Shown piece by piece: positions 21,596 to 30,022 of a stretch of DNA of 37,011 nucleotides. Position numbers and translations under genes: made by a program. This DNA comes from Clostridia bacterium (GTDB lineage: Bacteria > Bacillota > Clostridia > Christensenellales > Aristaeellaceae), in assembly GCA_017433405.1 (NCBI GenBank), contig JAFRHH010000080.1:1-37011 (forward strand), given 5' to 3'. The notes below the pieces were generated by a model. It had not been told where the DNA came from, made no database searches, and saw only the letters and a program-made list of their open reading frames with translations. Positions within the stretch are counted from its first letter, which is position 1, and the number at the start of each line of letters is the position of its first letter.

Positions 21596-21750
21596 GTTGG
21601 CCGAAGCAAAACCGGATAGCTTCCCGTTTTGAAATCATATGTACGATTTTCAGATCTTTGCTTCCCTTTGGGCCATTTGCTTCGTATATACTGCAGAGGG
21701 CTGGTCGCACAGGCCGCTCTCCAGACCATCAGAACAAGGAGGATTGAAAA

Positions 21751-22032
21751 ATGGAAAAGAAAATGATTGAACTGAGCGAAGAAATGTTAAACGAGGTTAA
21801 CGGCGGGGTATACCGCACGGTGAACACCGGCGTTGACGGGCTGAATGCCGCGCTGCGCGCAGGCGCCGGCAAGGGCACGAAACAGATTGCTTCCATCCCC
21901 AACGGGGCTGTTGTGGATACCGTCACCGATCATCTGGTCTATGATGAAGCCTCCGGGCGGCATTTCGTTCAGGTGATCTACAATGGAAAGACCGGCTGGA
22001 TCGCATCCTCACTGGTCGGTATGAGACGGTAA
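21751..22032 (+). CDS. Double-glycine leader peptide fused to an SH3b-like domain
   Basis: A 93-residue protein. Residues 7-19 (ELSEEMLNEVNGG) match the leader consensus of class II bacteriocins and ComC-type peptides (LSxxELxxIxGG). This predicts cleavage after Gly19 and export by a peptidase-containing ABC transporter. The remaining 74 residues are not bacteriocin-like but form one SH3b-type module: TVNTGVDGLNAALRAGAG, IASIPNGAVVDTV, FVQVIYNGKTGWIASSLV. SH3b domains bind cell-wall or peptide ligands. ACAAGGAGGATTG precedes the ATG. No transporter is in the window. It is convergent with the broken LytTR gene. Confidence 0.75.
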   Translation: MEKKMIELSEEMLNEVNGGVYRTVNTGVDGLNAALRAGAGKGTKQIASIPNGAVVDTVTDHLVYDEASGRHFVQVIYNGKTGWIASSLVGMRR

Positions 22033-22042
22033 CAGCAGAAAA

Positions 22043-22766
22043 TTACCCGTTTCCATTCTCCAGCATGCGTTTCAAACAGGCAGCCCGAAACGTCTTCCCC
22101 AGCGGAATCATCTGATCTCTGCAAAGCGTAATCCATCTGGCATTGACCTGAGAGACATATTTCCGGTTGATGATGTAGCTTTTATGGCATTGAAGAAACT
22201 GATCATCAGGAAGACGGGCAAACACCTCCTGGAGCGTGCTGGTAATCTGACAGGGCGCTTCCCGATCCGTGGCATGAATCCGCGTATGCCGCTGTAGATG
22301 TTCAATATAGACAATATTGGCCCGATTGATGCGAACGATTTGATCCCGCGTTCTGAATACGAGCAGATTCTGAAGGTTATTCGCAGCCTGAGCCCAGCAC
22401 AAATTCATACAGCGGGAAAACAGTTCCTCATTGATCGGATCAAACAGAAACCGCAGAGATTCCACTCCATAATGATCAAAGATAAACCCTTTTATCTTTC
22501 ATCATCAGAATAATGGGAATGCCGCTTTGTTCCCGCTGAATCCGATACGCTGTTTCAAAGCCCGATACATCTCCCGGAAACGCTGACGCGATGAACAGAA
22601 TATCCATGTTCAAGCTTTTTTCCCATGCGTCAATTAATTCATTGCTGGAACCAAAGGACTGAACAAACAGATCCTTTTCATGCCGATGAGTTTTTCCCCA
22701 GGTCATGATCATTGTCCGAAGATGCTCATGATGAACTATATCCGGGTCGCAAATAAAAACGTTCAA
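22043..22766 (-). pseudogene. LytTR response regulator, frameshifted and lacking the phospho-acceptor Asp
   Basis: Two consecutive frames rebuild one AgrA/LytR-type regulator of about 240 residues. Upstream frame (22766 to about 22490): receiver domain starting NVFICDPD and running to IPIILMMKDK. Downstream frame (about 22490 to 22043): FDHYGVESLRFLF, then a complete LytTR DNA-binding domain (IVYIEHLQRHTRIHATD, FLQCHKSYIINRKYV). Removing one base from the AAAA run (22490-22493 on the complement) restores a continuous reading frame that aligns without gaps to the intact regulator at 26507-27238. The receiver has Ala (LFIAS) where that protein has Asp60, and DP for the acidic pair. The likely start is TTG at 22766 behind GGAGG. 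The LytTR half alone has a GTG at 22465. Confidence 0.85.
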
Positions 22767-22828
22767 ACAAAGAACCTCCATTCTGCAACCATTATTCCCG
22801 GATGCAAAACCCTTGAAACACCAATCTG

Positions 22829-24205
22829 TCAGCCGTTCCCTTCACCCGGTCCGGAAAAAGCTTCGATTTCTCCGAGAATTGCATGGACGCCACAATTGTA
22901 CTGATAAACATCTTCCCCTTCGATTGAAACAAAATAGTTGAACCAGTAAGACGGCGTTCTGTAATGAACTGAAGGTTCATCCGAATACGTGCATGTCACT
23001 TTTGAGAAAGACATTTCAGAGAATCGGGGATATTTAGCACTCATAAAACGATCCGCGATGGATCTTGCTTCCTGCTCGCTCATGGGCGTTCCTTCCATAT
23101 GCTCCGGGGTGGGTGCCGGCTCAGCCAGATTGATTTCCGTCAGCAGATTACCGTTTTCATCATAGGCCGGAATGGGTTCAGGCGTAGGGGCCGGCGGCGG
23201 AGCGGTTTTAATATCCGCAATATTCTTATCATACGCGAAGCTGGAATAGTCCCCTTTATAGAGCACTTCTCCGGTATAGCAGTGGATATACGCCGCGTAT
23301 ATCGTCTGCCCCTGTTTGTTGAGATAGATAAACCGATAAAGCGGGCCGACAATTCCATCGCAGGAATACATGGTTTCCTGGCGGCAAGTATATCGTGACG
23401 CGTTAAATCCGGAAAACTGTTTGAGCACCTTTTCCGCCGTTTTCTTCGCTCCGGAGGCTGATACGGTAAACTTTGAGTCATCAATCTTGTCCGTGTTCTT
23501 TTCCATGGGCGTTAATTTGATGGAGGCAGCAGGAACAAAGCCGATTATCTGACTGTCCAGAATCTGGACCAGACACCACCTGCTGTTATACTGACTGATT
23601 GCCACCCCGATTCCTTTGTTCTGTGTCGAAATGATTTCAGCATTTTTATCCGGTTCTTTATACAGATTTGTCTCCTTTTGCAGAACGCCTTCCTCCCATT
23701 TCTGGGTGGCCGCCGCAACAGGATGATCATTCAGATTGTCAATCTGCTCAATCCGAACATACCCTTTTACGGACTTGTTGGAAACCAGCGCCCAATGATC
23801 ATCCACTTCCTCCAGGCTCATCCCCTGCTGCGCGTTCAGCATACCGACAATGGCCGCATGCTCATCCGGTGATTCCCGGAGATACAGGGTGTTTCCGTTG
23901 GAATAGATTTCCTGCCCAATCGCACTCGAAATCATCTTCACAAACTGAGACTGGACAAATCCCTCCTTCCCGCCGTAGGCGACATGCAGCCATCCCTCCG
24001 GAAGACCGTCTGATGATTCCAGAACGTTGAGGAGGGAACCGTTTTTTACTTTGGTGACGATCTTCGACTTTTGATCCGGCTCTTTTCTCACATTCAGGCT
24101 TCCCCCGTTCTCTGTGAAGACCTTCCCGGATTCGGCGAAAGCTGAACCAATCATCATGAGAAGGCCACTCAGAAGTGCCAGCATTTTCCAAATAATTGAT
24201 TTCAC
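22829..24205 (-). CDS. Secreted triple-SH3, PepSY-like protein (copy A)
   Basis: A 458-residue protein starting at GTG with AAAGGATG upstream. Signal peptide 1-24 (cleavage AFA-ES). Three SH3-like modules follow at about 28-90 (GGSLNVRKEPDQKSKIVTKV), 97-155 (NTLYLRESPDEHAAIVGML) and 170-230 (TNLYKEPDKNAEIISTQ). A PepSY-like alpha/beta domain lies at about 250-325 (AEKVLKQFSGFNAS, TGEVL). A Pro-rich linker (PPPAPTPEPIPAY) and a second PepSY-like domain (EARSIADRFMSAKYPRFSEM...CGVHAILGEIE) complete it. There is no membrane anchor, so it is probably released or wall-bound. It is near identical to copy B over residues 40-400. The broken LytTR gene follows it by 47 bases. Confidence 0.88.
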   Translation of the reverse strand: MKSIIWKMLALLSGLLMMIGSAFAESGKVFTENGGSLNVRKEPDQKSKIVTKVKNGSLLNVLESSDGLPEGWLHVAYGGKEGFVQSQFVKMISSAIGQEIYSNGNTLYLRESPDEHAAIVGMLNAQQGMSLEEVDDHWALVSNKSVKGYVRIEQIDNLNDHPVAAATQKWEEGVLQKETNLYKEPDKNAEIISTQNKGIGVAISQYNSRWCLVQILDSQIIGFVPAASIKLTPMEKNTDKIDDSKFTVSASGAKKTAEKVLKQFSGFNASRYTCRQETMYSCDGIVGPLYRFIYLNKQGQTIYAAYIHCYTGEVLYKGDYSSFAYDKNIADIKTAPPPAPTPEPIPAYDENGNLLTEINLAEPAPTPEHMEGTPMSEQEARSIADRFMSAKYPRFSEMSFSKVTCTYSDEPSVHYRTPSYWFNYFVSIEGEDVYQYNCGVHAILGEIEAFSGPGEGNG

Positions 24206-24230
24206 GTTAGCGCATCCTTTCTAAATGTAT

Positions 24231-24247
24231 TTGCAATAATGTTGCAA
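24231..24247 (-). promoter_or_regulatory. TTGCAA palindrome upstream of SH3 copy A
   Basis: TTGCAATAATGTTGCAA, an inverted repeat with one mismatch, 26 bases before the start codon and just after an AT-rich TATAAATTTA stretch that may hold the -10 box. The same element, perfect, precedes copy B at the same distance. Confidence 0.55.
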
Positions 24248-24285
24248 TAAATTTATAACATATTTGGAAAGAAACAAGTGTATAG

Positions 24286-24438
24286 ATTGACTGTTTGGTG
24301 CTTGAAATTGATTATACAGCTAAAACATGGGAGACATGCCTGGGCCTGTTTCTTTTGGCAGCACCGAACCTTGCCAGCTGGATCATCGGAAAGGCCGCCG
24401 ATCTGCTGTACAGGATACTGGGATTCATCACAGCCTGA
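24286..24438 (+). pseudogene. 3' remnant of an unknown membrane-associated gene
   Basis: A 50-codon open stretch without a credible start. It ends in a protein-like hydrophobic sequence (CLGLFLLAAPNLASWIIG, then KAADLLYRILGFITA) and a TGA, followed 36 bases later by a hairpin terminator on the same strand. Coding-like C-terminus plus terminator suggests the tail of a deleted gene, cut at its 5' side by the SH3 copy A upstream region. No family is recognised. Confidence 0.35.
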
Positions 24439-24439
24439 T

Positions 24440-24574
24440 TTATCGCCCAGTTTTATCACCCACTTTATCACCCAGCCGCTTCTTCGGAGGCGGCTTTTCC
24501 ATACTTGGCGACTTTGCGCTAACTTTGCCGCACTTGATAGAAAACAAAGATAGGAAATTCCGGACCCGATTCAT
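24440..24574 (-). CDS. 44-residue ORF between the SH3 copies
   Basis: A 44-residue basic ORF (begins MNRVRNFLSLFSIKCGK, ends GDKVGDKTGR) with an excellent ribosome site, AGAAAGGAGG, ten bases before the ATG. It ends in two near-identical GDK-V/T-G units. It overlaps a likely plus-strand terminator (24474-24499), so either it is a relic or that hairpin is not a terminator. No family is recognised. The rest of the 24206-24761 gap (24575-24761) has no gene that I can support. Confidence 0.3.
   Translation of the reverse strand: MNRVRNFLSLFSIKCGKVSAKSPSMEKPPPKKRLGDKVGDKTGR
24474..24499 (+). terminator. Hairpin terminator after the gene remnant
   Basis: AGCCGCTTC pairs with GGAGGCGGCT-type bases (one wobble) around a short loop, then TTTTCC follows. 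It is placed as expected behind the remnant ending at 24438. Confidence 0.45.
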
Positions 24575-24761
24575 TGTATGCAACCTCCTTTCTGACATTC
24601 CGTTCTGCCAGGCAGTATCATGCCATCAGAAAGGCTTGGATCCTGAAAAAAAACCAAACGACATGTATATGACTCAAAACACATAATTTATTCGTATATA
24701 CAGAATCTCCCTGGATAACGAAGTGCAAAAAAGTGCATATTTAACAAATGCTGCCTGGCTA

Positions 24762-26138
24762 TTAGCCTTGCCCTTCCCCGGGGCCAGAATAACCCTCTAT
24801 CTCTCCCAGAATCGCATGGACACCGCATCCGTATTGAACCACATCTTCCTCGTCAACGGAACAAAAATAATAAAATACATAAACGGGCGTTCTGTTGAGA
24901 TTGGAAGGTGTATCATCGTACCGACATGTCACTTTTGAGAAAGACATTTCAGAAAACCGGGGGTATTTTGCGCTCAGGAAACGGTCCGCAATGGACCTTG
25001 CTTCCTGCTCGCTCATGGGCGTTCCTTCCATATGCTCCGGGGTGGGTGCCGGCTCAGCCAGATTGATTTCCGTCAGCAGATTACCGTTTTCATCATAGGC
25101 CGGAATCGGTTCAGGCGTGGGAGCCGGCGGCGGAGCGGTTTTTATATCCGCAATATTCTTATCATACACGAAGCTGGAATAGTCCCCTTTATAAAGCACT
25201 TCTCCGGTATAGCAATGGATATACGCCGCGTATATCATCTGCCCCTGTTTGTTGAGGTAGATAAACCGATAAAGCGGGCCGACAATTCCATCGCAGGAAT
25301 ACATGGTTTCCTGGCGGCAGGTATAATGAGAGGCGTTAAATCCTGAAAACTGTTTCAGCGCCTTTTCCGCCGTTTTCTTCGCTCCTGAGGCCGATACGGT
25401 AAACTTTGAGTCGTCAATCTTATCCGTGTTCTTTTCCATGGGCGTTAATTTGATGGAGGCAGCAGGAACAAAGCCGATTATCTGACTGTCCAGAATCTGA
25501 ACCAGACACCACCTGCTGTTATACTGACTGATTGCCACCCCGATTCCTTTGTTCTGTGTCGAAATGATTTCAGCATTTTTATCCGGTTCTTTATACAGAT
25601 TCGTCTCCTTTTGCAGAACACCTTCCTCCCATTTCTGGGTAGCTGCCGCAACAGGGTGATCGTTCAGATTGTCAATCTGCTCAATCCGTACGTACCCTTT
25701 TACGGACTTATTGGAAACCAGCGCCCAATGATCATCCACTTCCTCCAGGCTCATCCCCTGCTGTGCGTTCAGCATACCAACAATGGCCGCATTCTCGTCC
25801 GGTGATTCCCGGAGATACAGGGTATTCCCGTTGGAATAGATTTCCTGCCCAATCGCACTGGAAATCATCTTCACAAACTGAGACTGGACAAATCCCTCCT
25901 TCCCGCCGTAGGCGACATGCAGCCATCCCTCCGGAAGACCGTCTGATGATTCCAGAACGTTGAGGAGGGAACCGTTTTTTACTTTGGTGACGATCTTCGA
26001 TTTTTGATCCGGCTCTTTTCTCATGTTCAGGCTTCCCCCGTTCTCTGTGGAAACTTTCCCGGATTCGGCAAACGCCGAGCCGATCAGCATGAGAATTCCA
26101 CACAGAAGTGCCAGTGTTTTACGATTCATTGATTTCAC
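24762..26138 (-). CDS. Secreted triple-SH3, PepSY-like protein (copy B)
   Basis: A 458-residue paralogue of the protein at 22829-24205, same length and domain order: signal peptide 1-24, SH3-like modules at about 28-90, 97-155 and 170-230, PepSY-like domain, Pro-rich linker, second PepSY-like domain. It starts at GTG with AAAGGATG upstream. Only about nine residues differ between positions 20 and 400. In contrast roughly a third of the last 55 differ (for example RYDDTPSNLNRTPVYVFYYFCSV against TYSDEPSVHYRTPSYWFNYFVSI), and the signal peptides also differ. It is divergent from the intact LytTR-kinase-AgrB operon, 368 bases away, so shared or linked control is plausible. Confidence 0.88.
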   Translation of the reverse strand: MKSMNRKTLALLCGILMLIGSAFAESGKVSTENGGSLNMRKEPDQKSKIVTKVKNGSLLNVLESSDGLPEGWLHVAYGGKEGFVQSQFVKMISSAIGQEIYSNGNTLYLRESPDENAAIVGMLNAQQGMSLEEVDDHWALVSNKSVKGYVRIEQIDNLNDHPVAAATQKWEEGVLQKETNLYKEPDKNAEIISTQNKGIGVAISQYNSRWCLVQILDSQIIGFVPAASIKLTPMEKNTDKIDDSKFTVSASGAKKTAEKALKQFSGFNASHYTCRQETMYSCDGIVGPLYRFIYLNKQGQMIYAAYIHCYTGEVLYKGDYSSFVYDKNIADIKTAPPPAPTPEPIPAYDENGNLLTEINLAEPAPTPEHMEGTPMSEQEARSIADRFLSAKYPRFSEMSFSKVTCRYDDTPSNLNRTPVYVFYYFCSVDEEDVVQYGCGVHAILGEIEGYSGPGEGQG

Positions 26139-26506: not shown

Positions 26507-27238
26507 ATGCAGATTGTAATATGCGATGATGAATCCATTTATTTAACTTCCGTTGCAAACCAAATTCTGTTGTGGGGCGAGAAAAGCCAGCGCGCAAAAT
26601 CTCTGACCGTAAAGTCATTCAAATCTACCGAGGATCTGCTGGAGGCATGGACTAACGGAATGTCCATCGATCTGCTTTTTGTTGACATCCAGATACCGGG
26701 CGAGCTAAGCGGCATGGAACTGGCCAAAATCATTCATCAAAAGGATGAATATGTCCCGATCGCGTTTATTACCAACTACGCGGAATATGCGTACGAGGGA
26801 TATTCTGTCAATGCGCTGCGCTATCTCCGTAAACCTTTGCTGCAGCGGGACATTGACGTTTGCATGGATATTGCCTGGCGGCAATGGATTAACAGGCAAA
26901 ATGTTTTTCTGTCCCTGGTAACAAATTCTCAATCGATCCACGTGCCCGTTCAAGCGATTATCTACGCGGAGGTTCTTGCGCATAGACTGCGTATTTGTAC
27001 AGCGGATGAAATCGGGCAATACGAGATTAGAAGCACTTTGGATCAGCTGGAAAGCAAACTTCCTGACAGTCAATTTGTTCGCTGTCATAAAAGCTTTCCG
27101 GTAAGCCTGCGACACGTTCGAAAATACAAGAGCGGCGTCCTGACGATTTCCTCAGGGCTGGAAATCCCGGTTGGACGAAAATATACTCAGACATTTGCAA
27201 ATAAGTTCAGGGCCTACTATCAGGGAGACGAAGCATAA
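26507..27238 (+). CDS. LytTR family response regulator (AgrA-like)
   Basis: A 243-residue regulator. Receiver domain 1-120 has the acidic pair Asp7/Asp8, phospho-acceptor Asp60 (LLFVDIQIPG) and the RKP lysine motif near 105. The LytTR DNA-binding domain covers about 135-240 (IIYAEVLAHRLRIC, DSQFVRCHKSFPVSL, KSGVLTISSGLEIPVGRKY). It should be phosphorylated by the kinase encoded directly after it, whose start overlaps its stop (TAATG). CCGGAGG lies seven bases upstream. It is the intact relative of the broken gene at 22043-22766 and the best candidate to control the SH3 genes. Confidence 0.93.
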   Translation: MQIVICDDESIYLTSVANQILLWGEKSQRAKSLTVKSFKSTEDLLEAWTNGMSIDLLFVDIQIPGELSGMELAKIIHQKDEYVPIAFITNYAEYAYEGYSVNALRYLRKPLLQRDIDVCMDIAWRQWINRQNVFLSLVTNSQSIHVPVQAIIYAEVLAHRLRICTADEIGQYEIRSTLDQLESKLPDSQFVRCHKSFPVSLRHVRKYKSGVLTISSGLEIPVGRKYTQTFANKFRAYYQGDEA

Positions 27239-28521
27239 TGTGGCTGGTGTTCGAAATTGGCGTTAATCTTTATCAGGCCTTGCTGATGATCTATTTCGTC
27301 AACAAGCGCTGCCATCTCAAGGAGCATCCTTTGTTGCTTGACGGCGTAATGGTTGTCGTGACCGCCCTTGCCATCTGTGGAACGAATGCGCTGAATGCTC
27401 CTTTGCTGGACAATGCCGTACTGCTCGTCCCGCTGGGATACTCGCTGTGGATGCGAAAGTCAAAAGGATTAGCTGCCGTTTTCTGGTGCATCGTACTCTG
27501 TGTTATTTTTACGGTGGATGCCACGATTACCAGCGGAGCCATTACATTAATTACAGGCTCAAGCTGGGAATACATGCTGCGACAAAATGATATTCGGGTG
27601 CTGTATATTATAACAGCCAATCTGGTTCATACGCTGATGATCGTTGGAATTGGAAATATAGGTTCCGGAAGACATATCCTTTCCGGTGGAACTACACTCT
27701 GTTTCCTGCTTTCATTGGCTGTTCAGTTTGCCGTAGCGGCCTGCTTCTTTTGTATCCGGGTTGCCAATTCCGCCATAACTCCCGCCGCGACTTACGGAAG
27801 CATCGGATCCCTGGCTTCCATGATTCTGACAATCCTGTTCTATGAAATGATGATCAGGCAGGCAGAAAAGCAGCGAAGGCTGGAATATGATATACAAACA
27901 ACTCAGATGATCAGCGATCATCAAGACGAAATAAAAGAAATATACTCCAACATGCTTTCGACACAGCATGATTTACGGCATCGGATCACCGTTGCGGAGA
28001 AAATTCTTGCTGAAGAGGGGAAGGACGCTCCAAAGGCCGCCATGGATCTTCTCAAGGATACGACCGTGCTCAATGAGTTTATTACCGGAAACGTTGCAGT
28101 GGACGCTGTTCTGGCAGCCAAAGCGGCCGTCATGAAAAAAGCTGAAATTCAGTTTGTATTTAACTCATGCCCATTGAATCAACTTCCGCTTCCTGAAAGG
28201 CAATTTGTCATTATGCTCTCAAACATGTTGGATAATGCGATAGAAGGAATCATGCGCATGAAGAATGCCTCGGCGAGAGAGGTAGCTCTGTCTTTCTCGC
28301 GAAACTGGGATATTTTTTCCATTGTCTGTGTTAATGATGTGGACCCCAGAACCGTTGTTCGGAGAGACGATACTTTCCTGTCCGCTAAAGAGCAGCGCTT
28401 TGCTCATGGATACGGAACGGAAAACATGAAAAGAATCGTTGAGGAAGCCGGCGGGCTCATTGATTACGCTGTGGGTAATCATAAGTTTTCTGTAAAAGTT
28501 TTACTGCCTGTGGAGGAATGA
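27238..28521 (+). CDS. AgrC-like sensor histidine kinase (GHKL)
   Basis: A 427-residue membrane kinase. Residues 1-205 contain about six hydrophobic segments, the usual AgrC peptide-sensing domain. A coiled stretch leads to the phospho-acceptor region QHDLRHRI (243-250, probable His244). The ATP-binding domain shows MLSNMLDNAIEGI (326-338, N box) and HGYGTENMKRIVEEAGG near the C-terminus (G box). It is expected to sense an extracellular peptide and phosphorylate the LytTR regulator. It overlaps that gene by one base and the AgrB-like gene by four, showing tight coupling. Confidence 0.92.
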   Translation: MWLVFEIGVNLYQALLMIYFVNKRCHLKEHPLLLDGVMVVVTALAICGTNALNAPLLDNAVLLVPLGYSLWMRKSKGLAAVFWCIVLCVIFTVDATITSGAITLITGSSWEYMLRQNDIRVLYIITANLVHTLMIVGIGNIGSGRHILSGGTTLCFLLSLAVQFAVAACFFCIRVANSAITPAATYGSIGSLASMILTILFYEMMIRQAEKQRRLEYDIQTTQMISDHQDEIKEIYSNMLSTQHDLRHRITVAEKILAEEGKDAPKAAMDLLKDTTVLNEFITGNVAVDAVLAAKAAVMKKAEIQFVFNSCPLNQLPLPERQFVIMLSNMLDNAIEGIMRMKNASAREVALSFSRNWDIFSIVCVNDVDPRTVVRRDDTFLSAKEQRFAHGYGTENMKRIVEEAGGLIDYAVGNHKFSVKVLLPVEE

Positions 28522-29102
28522 AGATGCTGTTGTCCATTGCAAACCGTATCAGCCTTTACCTGATGAAGGAAAACCCTGATCAGGATCCGATAGAGGCCTG
28601 TACGTATGGGATTGATATTGTGCTTTACACCTTGATCAGCACAGCAGGATTGACCCTCATCGGATCACTGTTTCTTACGTTCGGTCAGACGGCTCTTCTG
28701 ATTGCCGTGTATTACGCGAACCAAATGAGTGGAGGCGGTTATCATGCCTCCACTCATACAAAGTGCTTTTTTTCTATGACCGCTGGTTTGCTGTTCAGTG
28801 CTTTTGTGATTTGGTTTATAAACGGCTCGCTGTCAATTGTTATTCCTACGTCCTGCACGGCATTGCTAGTTTTATGGAAATATCCTGTAATACTTCACAA
28901 AAACAAGCAATACCTTTCAACGATCATGACCGTAATGAAAAATCGAGCCAGACTTATTTCAGGACTGTCTTTCTTCATCACTGTTGCACTGTATTTCAAC
29001 CCTGCTCTCTCCGAAGCTGCCATGATGGGAATGATCATGGCCGCAGTCTCCAGGCTTTCATCTATAGTATTAACGCGGGCGTCGAAAGCGCCTGCTCCGT
29101 GA
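28518..29102 (+). CDS. AgrB-like accessory gene regulator / peptide-processing protease
   Basis: A 194-residue polytopic membrane protein of the AgrB family. AgrB cleaves the C-terminus of the AgrD precursor and forms a thiolactone in the autoinducer. The catalytic pair fits: His76 and Cys83 in GGGYHASTHTKCF, the required H-x6-C spacing. The preceding segment (LLIAVYYANQMSGGGYHA) and the following membrane helices match the family. The ATG at 28518 overlaps the kinase stop. A second Met two codons on is possible. No AgrD-like precursor follows or precedes it in the window, and the order A-C-B differs from the classical B-D-C-A. Confidence 0.9.
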   Translation: MKMLLSIANRISLYLMKENPDQDPIEACTYGIDIVLYTLISTAGLTLIGSLFLTFGQTALLIAVYYANQMSGGGYHASTHTKCFFSMTAGLLFSAFVIWFINGSLSIVIPTSCTALLVLWKYPVILHKNKQYLSTIMTVMKNRARLISGLSFFITVALYFNPALSEAAMMGMIMAAVSRLSSIVLTRASKAPAP

Positions 29103-29170
29103 CCCGCAGGTCAGGATTCTATCCAGTTTTTCCAGTAATGTCATCTGCGCTTATCCCCCGGATTCCCCTG

Positions 29171-30022
29171 TCAATTCCCGTTCAGCAGCTCCGACGAAGC
29201 CGGTACAACAATGGTAAACGCGCCTTTGAGGAACGGAACGGTTGCGACCGTGTTCTCCGGCTGATCCTCTACGTCGGCCATCGCCCAGTTGCCAAAATCG
29301 CCCGCCTCCATCCAGAAAACAACGTCCGTTATTTGGGAGCTCAGCGCGATGGCTCTCGCGGCCGTATCAATCGGTACGAATTCAACGTTCATCGCGAGCC
29401 GTTTTCCGATTTCAGACACAAGCGCCGTATTGAAGCCGATAGGATTCCCGGCTTCAGAGAAGTAATCCATCGGCGGACGGTCGCCCGTCAGCGCGACCCG
29501 CAGGGTCTGCGCGCCATCGAATGTTTCCGGCACAATCGCTTCGGGCTCCGCGCCCGCGATGACTTCGTCAACGTACTGCTTCTTCAGGGCCTCCAGCGTC
29601 CCGTCGGACTTCATGGACTCGATTGCTTCTGAAATCCGGTCGCGCAGCGCGGTGTCCTCCCCGCGGAGCAGCATGGAGAAATTCAAGGCATAGGAGGGAA
29701 CGCTTTCAGGGGGATTATAGATCGTATATTCTTCCGTTCTTGAAAGCAAATATTTGGCCGTATATTCATCAAGCGCCATCCCGGTGATGTGTCCGCTGGC
29801 AAGCGCTGAAACCATGCTGTTCAGATTATCGAAAAACTGATAGCGGGAAAACGGTACTTTGCTGAAATAGCTTTCCGAAATGGCTTCGGTCAGCGTGGTT
29901 TCATCCACATTCAGCTTCGTCAGGCGTCCAAGCACGCCCTGCTCCTCCGCCAAAGCCGCGGTATTCAGTACGGACAGCATCAGAAGTACGATGATCGTCA
30001 GGATCGAAGCGCTCTTTTTCAT
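29171..30022 (-). CDS. Secreted solute-binding protein (SBP family 3 type) with permuted lobes
   Basis: A 283-residue protein with a signal peptide (1-25, cleavage ALA-EE). Residues 40-155 look like the second half of an amino-acid-binding protein: NLNSMVSALASGHITGMALDEYTAKYLL, then ALNFSMLLRGEDTALRDRISEAIESMKSDGTLEALKKQYV, the family's usual C-terminal helix. Residues 172-280 look like the first half: TLRVALTGDRPPMDYFSEAGNPIGFNTALVSEIGKRL and a closing ATVPFLKGAFTIVVPAS. The two halves are thus in reversed order. The ATG at 30022 follows GAGGAG. No permease or ATPase is adjacent, and binding activity is not proven. Confidence 0.85.
   Translation of the reverse strand: MKKSASILTIIVLLMLSVLNTAALAEEQGVLGRLTKLNVDETTLTEAISESYFSKVPFSRYQFFDNLNSMVSALASGHITGMALDEYTAKYLLSRTEEYTIYNPPESVPSYALNFSMLLRGEDTALRDRISEAIESMKSDGTLEALKKQYVDEVIAGAEPEAIVPETFDGAQTLRVALTGDRPPMDYFSEAGNPIGFNTALVSEIGKRLAMNVEFVPIDTAARAIALSSQITDVVFWMEAGDFGNWAMADVEDQPENTVATVPFLKGAFTIVVPASSELLNGN

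What the first reader, a model, noticed from the sequence alone, without database searches (positions are those of the whole stretch)
21751..22032. A bacteriocin-type double-glycine leader fused to an SH3b-like domain
ELSEEMLNEVNGG is a near-perfect GG-leader, but the cargo is a folded SH3b-like module of about 74 residues rather than a small toxin. This suggests a peptidase-transporter exporting a wall- or peptide-binding domain as a public good or signal. It sits beside two large secreted SH3 proteins and an Agr-type circuit, so several SH3 ligand binders appear in one locus.
Basis: partly seen in the sequence, partly recalled or inferred. Interest (0 to 1): 0.78.

Follow-up and report, generated by a model that had tools for sequence, protein, structure and literature searches.

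The report
Exporter-tagged wall-binding mini-protein family
A gut bacterium's small protein pairs the export tag usually seen on bacteriocins with a wall-binding-type domain, and it belongs to a larger set of similarly tagged small proteins, several of which share a promoter, which points to an export route for small wall-binding proteins.

Summary
Confirmed. ORF 21751-22032 (+) encodes a canonical double-glycine leader plus a 74-residue SH3b domain (SH3_3 33.1 bits, cut-off 27). All 39 short family frames read keep GG; in a class-wide sample the matches outside the family cover mainly the SH3 part. The genome has two C39 (NHLM-type) exporters; 20 of 21 genomes with this subfamily have C39, against 125 of 279 others. 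In one relative two GG-SH3 genes directly precede a complete exporter operon. The Agr link is not conserved.

Beyond the finding: in the window's genus and two others, 14 of 17 GG-SH3 genes have an ECF-type promoter (TGCCR-N15/16-CGTAY; the window gene's own is degenerate). Scanning DNA with it found further GG-leader mini-proteins, including the genome's only two LysM proteins. The promoter also precedes an operon of a ~65-residue peptide and an ECF sigma factor, often near the exporter; this peptide has the leader register with AA in place of GG in 32 of 32 copies (and in two outside the family), like an uncleavable substrate. Genus g17 uses another box for such genes.

Export is well supported; cleavage, wall binding, sigma control and the peptide's role are inferred.

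The parts
21751..22032 (+). GG-leader SH3b gene, 93 aa
21751..21807 (+). double-glycine leader, residues 1-19, V-4 L-7 L-12
   Evidence: register as in PMC6363468 passages
21808..22029 (+). predicted exported chain, 74 aa, no cysteine
21847..22017 (+). SH3_3 match, residues 33-89
   Evidence: solved SH3b relatives of the family profile
21736..21742 (+). ribosome-binding site AAGGAGG
   Evidence: sequence
21662..21687 (+). candidate ECF-type promoter: good -10 CGTAT (21683-21687), degenerate -35 TTCCC instead of TGCCA; not a match to the pattern
22829..24205 (-). secreted-type protein with three SH3_3 domains (neighbour)
   Evidence: signal peptide by eye
24762..26138 (-). tandem copy of the previous, 425 of 458 residues identical
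26507..29102 (+). Agr-like set: LytTR response regulator 26507-27238, GHKL kinase 27238-28521, AgrB 28518-29102 (neighbours; not conserved beside other GG-SH3 genes)

Best explanation
The gene encodes a small protein that a C39-peptidase exporter of NHLM type recognises by its double-glycine leader, cuts after GG and passes out of the cell, where the 74-residue chain folds as an SH3b domain that most likely binds peptidoglycan. It is one of a family-wide set of GG-leader mini-proteins (SH3b, LysM, zinc-finger-like, bacteriocin-like). In this genus many of them share an ECF-type promoter with an operon of a ~65-aa leader-mimic peptide and an ECF sigma factor, often near the exporter. Shown by sequence: leader, domain, conservation, exporter, co-occurrence, linkage in relatives, shared promoter. 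Inferred: cleavage, export, wall binding, that this sigma reads this promoter, and that the window gene, whose -35 is degenerate, belongs to the regulon. Which of the two exporters serves it is not known.
For: Leader register and GG in 44 of 44 rows. SH3_3 above cut-off for the window protein, its paralogue and two of the second subfamily. Two C39 exporters over the TIGR03796 cut-off; C39 residues ECG, NH and ND present by eye. GG-SH3 (window subfamily) and C39 co-occur in 20/21 against 125/279 genomes, Fisher 3.3e-6, kinship not corrected. Linkage: G010, two GG-SH3 genes then HlyD-like, C39-ABC and ABC2 (L113); G209, two GG-SH3 genes then an HlyD-like gene near a contig end (L131); G172 and G240, beside an ABC pair whose C39-like domain has N for the catalytic C by eye. 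Promoter (loose form) upstream of 14 of 18 GG-SH3 genes in g1/g48/g10/g12, the window counted as a failure. Of 22 genes downstream of promoter hits served in seven genomes, 12 have a GG register, against 3 of 481 genes without the promoter; 4 of the 12 are GG-SH3 genes that had given the motif, and without them it is 8 of 18, Fisher 8e-11. In the own genome 9 of 9 strict hits are intergenic, and the intergenic loose hits lead to two GG-LysM, the GG-SH3 paralogue, a GG 77-aa protein and a Nif11-like precursor; these LysM are the only two PF01476 hits in the assembly.
Against: No export, cleavage or binding was measured. The gene is not beside an exporter in its own genome; 35 of 39 other GG-SH3 loci read show none nearby, though some are short. 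G125 has the gene but no C39 hit (83% complete). The window gene's -35 is degenerate, and L042, L045 and L048 lack the promoter. The loose pattern is not enriched in the own genome (30 hits, 32 for the reversed control). Within the genus alone the promoter contrast between genomes with and without the sigma operon is modest (Fisher 0.010). One exporter (C86) sits with a LanM-like and a radical SAM enzyme and may be dedicated to a RiPP. The fold model is weak. The genomes are mostly draft.
Confidence: 0.72

Rival explanations
1. It is a class II bacteriocin or bacteriocin-like antagonist whose SH3b domain binds the wall of competitors and harms them.
For: The leader part resembles PF10439; bacteriocin-like GG peptides share the promoter.
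Against: Below the PF10439 and TIGR01847 cut-offs; the cargo is a wall-binding-type domain with no catalytic domain; no immunity-like neighbour recurs: the commonest neighbour cluster, a ~450-aa transporter by eye, is in 9 of 40 loci.
Confidence: 0.15
2. It is an exported signal sensed by a surface receptor, such as the neighbouring two-component system.
For: Agr-like genes lie nearby; GG leaders are used by pheromones (established knowledge; PMC6363468 introduction passage).
Against: The Agr neighbourhood is not conserved; genomes carry several divergent copies with conserved domain residues rather than a short variable pheromone.
Confidence: 0.08
3. The protein stays inside; the N-terminus is an unrelated helix that resembles a leader.
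For: No direct export data.
Against: GG and the -4/-7/-12 register are kept over two divergent subfamilies, with exporter linkage and co-occurrence.
Confidence: 0.05

Closest known systems
PCAT1 and its substrate CtA (Clostridium thermocellum)
   Same: C39 exporter handling a 90-residue GG-leader polypeptide rather than a short peptide (PMC6959990, abstract and passages)
   Different: CtA's cargo region is unstructured in the complex; here the cargo is an SH3b domain, in many copies, with shared promoters
NHLM (NHLP/Nif11) export systems and LahT
   Same: The exporters here score above TIGR03796; leader register as for LahT (PMC6363468 passages). NHLP/Nif11 paper PMC2887384 seen as listing and start of abstract only
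   Different: No NHLP or Nif11 match for the GG-SH3 protein; cargo with 0-1 cysteine; no modification enzyme among the seven neighbours scanned
Secreted SH3b wall-binding proteins (EntA/EntB type, SH3b domains of wall hydrolases)
   Same: Same SH3_3 domain; profile match to 2KQ8 and 2KRS
   Different: Those go by Sec signal peptides and often as part of larger enzymes (recalled); here a single domain follows a GG leader
FlgM-type export-coupled anti-sigma factors (recalled)
   Same: For the 65-aa peptide only: a small protein co-encoded with a sigma factor and carrying an export-system recognition signal
   Different: ECF sigma and C39 exporter instead of sigma28 and the flagellar system; anti-sigma activity untested; GG replaced by AA suggests binding without cleavage

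Membership tests
Double-glycine substrates of C39 peptidase exporters | GG (GA, GS) at -2/-1 | tested here: met
   Gly18-Gly19; 44 of 44 rows
Double-glycine substrates of C39 peptidase exporters | Hydrophobic residues at -4, -7, -12 | tested here: met
   V, L, L in the window protein; all hydrophobic in 44 of 44
Double-glycine substrates of C39 peptidase exporters | A C39 exporter in the genome | tested here: met
   two PF03412 hits over cut-off in G000; TIGR03796 924 and 914 bits
Double-glycine substrates of C39 peptidase exporters | Linked to the exporter | tested here: inconclusive
   not in the own genome; yes in G010, G209, G172 and G240
Double-glycine substrates of C39 peptidase exporters | Cleaved and exported | not testable with these tools
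   needs biochemistry or mass spectrometry
Bacterial SH3 domain (SH3_3) | Profile score above the curated cut-off | tested here: met
   33.1 against 27
Bacterial SH3 domain (SH3_3) | SH3 fold | tested here: inconclusive
   single-sequence model pLDDT 71, last strands only and a helix at 30-37; profile match to solved SH3b; fold search not available
Class II bacteriocin (PF10439, TIGR01847) | Curated cut-off | tested here: not met
   21.7 against 27.1 and 14.5 against 15.7
Class II bacteriocin (PF10439, TIGR01847) | Antimicrobial activity with immunity | not testable with these tools
   no recurrent immunity-like neighbour by eye
NHLP/Nif11 RiPP precursors | NHLP or Nif11 leader domain and a modification enzyme nearby | tested here: not met
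   no such match for the protein, no such enzyme among the seven neighbours scanned
Export-coupled anti-sigma factors (for the 65-aa peptide) | Binds and silences its sigma factor | not testable with these tools
   only co-encoding shown: 26 of 32 copies directly upstream of an ECF sigma, and both copies outside the family
Export-coupled anti-sigma factors (for the 65-aa peptide) | Carries a secretion-system recognition signal | tested here: inconclusive
   leader register kept in 27 rows that were picked with an AA pattern; AA for GG in 32 of 32 copies not so picked; docking not tested

The most novel reading that the evidence does not exclude
The genus runs an exporter-sensing circuit. An ECF sigma factor drives GG-leader wall-binding mini-proteins, and its co-encoded 65-aa partner is an uncleavable leader mimic (C39 recognition register, GG replaced by AA). 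Free or exporter-docked, it would tell the sigma factor whether the exporter is present and how busy it is, so that cargo synthesis follows export capacity: a C39-exporter counterpart of FlgM, controlling a secretome of single LysM and SH3b domains that coat the wall.
Probability: 0.3. Interest if true: 0.88.

Novelty: new variant of a known kind. Interest (0 to 1): 0.72.

Why it matters
C39 exporters are studied as exporters of bacteriocins, pheromones and RiPPs. Here the same tag is used for single peptidoglycan-binding-type domains, in several copies per genome, with promoters that predict further members. It gives a simple way to find a hidden Sec-independent wall secretome in uncultured gut bacteria, and the AA-for-GG peptide beside the sigma factor makes a definite, testable proposal for how export capacity could be sensed.

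Tried and rejected
Agr-controlled SH3 signal: rejected, neighbours not conserved (the first form of this test was void for AgrB because my gene caller had missed the window's own AgrB). RiPP precursor: rejected for GG-SH3, cargo 0-1 Cys in 44 rows and no modification enzyme among the neighbours scanned. Direct repeat TTGCTTC-N12-TTGCTTC upstream of the window gene: one exact hit, but 5 hits at up to 3 mismatches against 3.07 expected, and not seen by eye upstream of relatives; left open. Viral collection: none. Genome-contig scan: 3 loci, all SH3 stretches in longer frames. Exporter tree to pick the cognate exporter: not built. Fold search: not obtained. AgrD: none recognised by eye near AgrB. 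Two entries of my notebook are superseded: says 16 intergenic promoter hits in the own genome, the recount is 14 of 30; and it gives about 13 GG genes, the scripted count is 12. For the two copies of the 65-aa peptide outside the family, one search showed no sigma gene because the caller is trained on the window's codons; with plain open frames both are directly followed by an ECF sigma.

Full report
The observation. ORF 21751-22032 (+) is a good gene: ATG, ribosome-binding site AAGGAGG, 93 codons, and a stop with 10 bases before the end of the convergent LytTR frame. Its first 19 residues are a double-glycine leader with V-4, L-7 and L-12, the positions that sit in the groove of a C39 peptidase (passages of PMC6363468). 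Residues 33-89 score 33.1 bits against SH3_3 (cut-off 27); PF10439 and TIGR01847 match the leader below cut-off. There is a paralogue at 61% identity on contig C12 of the same genome.

Conservation. A search of 300 genomes of the family (E 0.001) matched 53; 21 of them have strong matches to the window subfamily (E 1.5e-12 or better; G076's gene is split over two frames). I read 39 short (<=160 aa) matched frames, the window's included; all 39 have GG. Three short rows were dropped: the two of G076 and a 70-aa frame of G079 that I did not fetch. The query was full-length, which favours leader-bearing matches, but the rows of A1 were not chosen for GG (23 of 23). A2 (21 rows) is the second subfamily with a canonical SH3b: 16 rows and 5 neighbours, read out with a GG pattern or from the gene lists, so its GG count is less free of choice. 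In 391 genomes of the class (E 1e-6) the matches outside the family begin at model position 12 or later, most at 19 or later, apart from three (G387, G464, G581, position 4-6) in frames of 321 aa or more. So the fusion looks restricted to this family at this sensitivity.

Exporters. The own genome has two C39 exporters, both above the NHLM_micro_ABC1 cut-off, each with a short HlyD-like protein (TIGR03794 match partial, below cut-off) and a TIGR03797-like partner (706 and 674 bits, cut-off 709). The C86 operon also holds a LanM-like protein (272 bits, cut-off 304) and an rSAM_ACGX enzyme (437, cut-off 400), so it may serve a RiPP. The C67 operon lies beside rnf genes (by eye) and is followed by a 65-aa peptide and an ECF sigma factor. 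Of the 300 genomes 145 have C39; 20 of the 21 GG-SH3 genomes do, against 125 of the 279 others, some of which carry the second subfamily (Fisher 3.3e-6; kinship not corrected). Linkage: among 62 loci read as exporter loci (in three of them my caller showed no exporter) one, G010 (L113), has two GG-SH3 genes directly before HlyD-like, C39-ABC and ABC2 genes. Among 39 loci read as GG-SH3 loci, the window included, three have exporter genes near: L131 (two GG-SH3 genes, then an HlyD-like gene near the contig end), L118 and L121 (an ABC pair whose C39-like domain reads ENG where the active ones read ECG).

A shared promoter. Upstream regions in the window's genus and relatives contain TGCCR-N15/16-CGTAY, the form of an ECF sigma promoter (recalled), 64-122 bases before the start. 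Counts by genus: g1 10 of 13, g48 3 of 3, g10 1 of 1, g12 0 of 1, g17 and g11 0 of 22; 12 of the 14 are strict TGCCA...CGTAT. The window gene is one of the three g1 failures: CGTAT at 21683-21687 but TTCCC at the -35 place. In the own genome the loose pattern gives 30 hits, no more than the reversed control (32). Of the 30, 14 are intergenic and 16 lie inside genes; all 9 strict hits are intergenic. Downstream of the 14 are two GG-LysM proteins, the GG-SH3 paralogue, a GG 77-aa protein, a Nif11-like precursor (20.9 bits, cut-off 23.8), the 65-aa peptide with sigma, five proteins with Sec signals by eye (one SH3-like), a 113-aa protein, a radical SAM-like protein by eye, and one hit without a gene. 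PF01476 has two hits in this assembly at E 0.1, both these GG-LysM proteins (assembly 89% complete). In seven other genomes of the genus, all picked for GG-SH3, the strict pattern has 174 hits against 58 for the control. Of the 30 loci served by that call, 6 lie inside genes, 2 have no gene, and of the 22 downstream genes 12 have a GG leader by pattern (L254 would be a thirteenth by eye), against 3 of 481 genes without the promoter (Fisher 6e-16). Four of the 12 are GG-SH3 genes that had given the motif; without them it is 8 of 18 (Fisher 8e-11). The new ones include LysM, zinc-ribbon-like and other cargoes.

Natural control. The strict pattern has 295 hits against 105 control hits in 13 genus genomes that have the 65-aa peptide, and 97 against 78 in 10 genomes that lack it (Fisher 2.6e-5). 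Split: 70 against 45 in six genus members without it (Fisher 0.010 against the 13) and 27 against 33 in four g17 genomes (1.6e-5). So within the genus the contrast is modest, and some enrichment remains without the peptide.

A second box. In g17 and g11, GG-SH3 genes instead carry TGAYRNTTNTGTGAC, an 11-base direct repeat before a TATA-like -10. In 33 loci (32 of these genera, one of g48; chosen for GG-SH3 or exporters) there are 22 hits and 0 reversed controls, 21 of the 22 before GG-leader genes (one of these, L122, the caller having missed it); 19 of 22 GG-SH3 loci have it. Genome-wide in six genomes there are 34 hits and 0 controls. Of the 30 loci served, 13 lead to GG-leader proteins (7 already known GG-SH3 loci, 6 new), 9 to proteins with Sec signals by eye, 2 to other short frames and 6 to no called gene, at least three of these at contig ends.

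The 65-aa peptide. It matches no Pfam or NCBIfam model at E 0.01. It is found in 80 of 300 family genomes, 73 of which have C39 (Fisher 6e-21), and in 2 of 381 other genomes of the class search. Of the 32 copies in the 30 loci served, 26 directly precede an ECF sigma frame and 22 have the loose promoter; both copies outside the family also directly precede an ECF sigma. All 32, and those two, end in a leader-like stretch with AA where substrates have GG. In the register test (27 rows, picked with an AA pattern) L-12 and V/I-4 are in all, M/L/A at -7, E/D at -8. GG, GA and GS are the motifs named in the PMC6363468 passage; AA is not among them. I therefore read it as a possible uncleavable exporter ligand. 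Of the 21 GG-SH3 genomes 14 have it; the 7 without are six g17 genomes and G155.

Mechanism. Shown: leader, domain, exporter, conservation, linkage in relatives, promoter sharing. Inferred: recognition and cleavage after Gly19, export of an unfolded chain, folding outside as SH3b, binding to peptidoglycan. LysM and SH3b are both wall-binding folds by established knowledge, which is why I prefer the wall to a signal or a toxin. That the sigma factor reads the promoter rests on autoregulatory placement and on the natural control, not on an experiment.

Limits. The AlphaFold2 model is single-sequence and weak in its first half. I did not establish the organism's name.

Literature. Searches pairing GG leader or C39 with SH3, LysM, ECF sigma or FlgM showed no paper on this combination in the rows listed; searches matched none, and searches matched more papers than the 8-20 listed. 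The library holds open-licence papers only. PMC13289728 (rumen bacteriocins) has no mention of SH3 or LysM in its main text (find). PMC12648078 (on a class II bacteriocin atlas) was seen only as listing and start of abstract; such pipelines may already list these genes as bacteriocins.

Noticed in passing
22043-22781 (-): A LytTR response regulator appears in two pieces in different frames: a receiver part of 101 aa (22476-22781) and a LytTR part of 140 aa (22043-22465). A frameshift or an assembly error; described only.
   Followed up: no
22829-26138 (-): Two secreted-type SH3 proteins are a recent tandem duplication, 425 of 458 residues identical, with similar upstream DNA.
   Followed up: partly
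26507-29200: Agr-like regulator, kinase and AgrB without an AgrD peptide that I could recognise by eye next to them.
   Followed up: partly
21657-21683 (+): Exact direct repeat TTTGCTTC, 19 bases apart, touching the -10 of the GG-SH3 gene; a possible activator site.
   Followed up: partly
L037:14305-15020, and L071, L073, L078, L087, L094, L096, L097: Conserved 65-aa peptide and ECF sigma pair at C39 exporter operons, leader register with AA for GG.
   Followed up: yes
L118:7009-9138, L121:8004-10097: C39-like ABC exporter proteins with asparagine in place of the catalytic cysteine by eye, near a GG-SH3 gene.
   Followed up: partly
L052, L053, L055, L066, L074, L086 and others: STAS-domain and HATPase-like genes (by eye) recur near exporters and near some GG-SH3 genes.
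   Followed up: no
L173, L235, L243: A recurring GG-leader cargo with the motif NK(F/Y)W and an EYK..FG tail; for the L173 protein Pfam shows only the leader, below cut-off.
   Followed up: no
L133 (G076:C167): A GG-SH3 gene split over two frames; intact relatives exist elsewhere.
   Followed up: no
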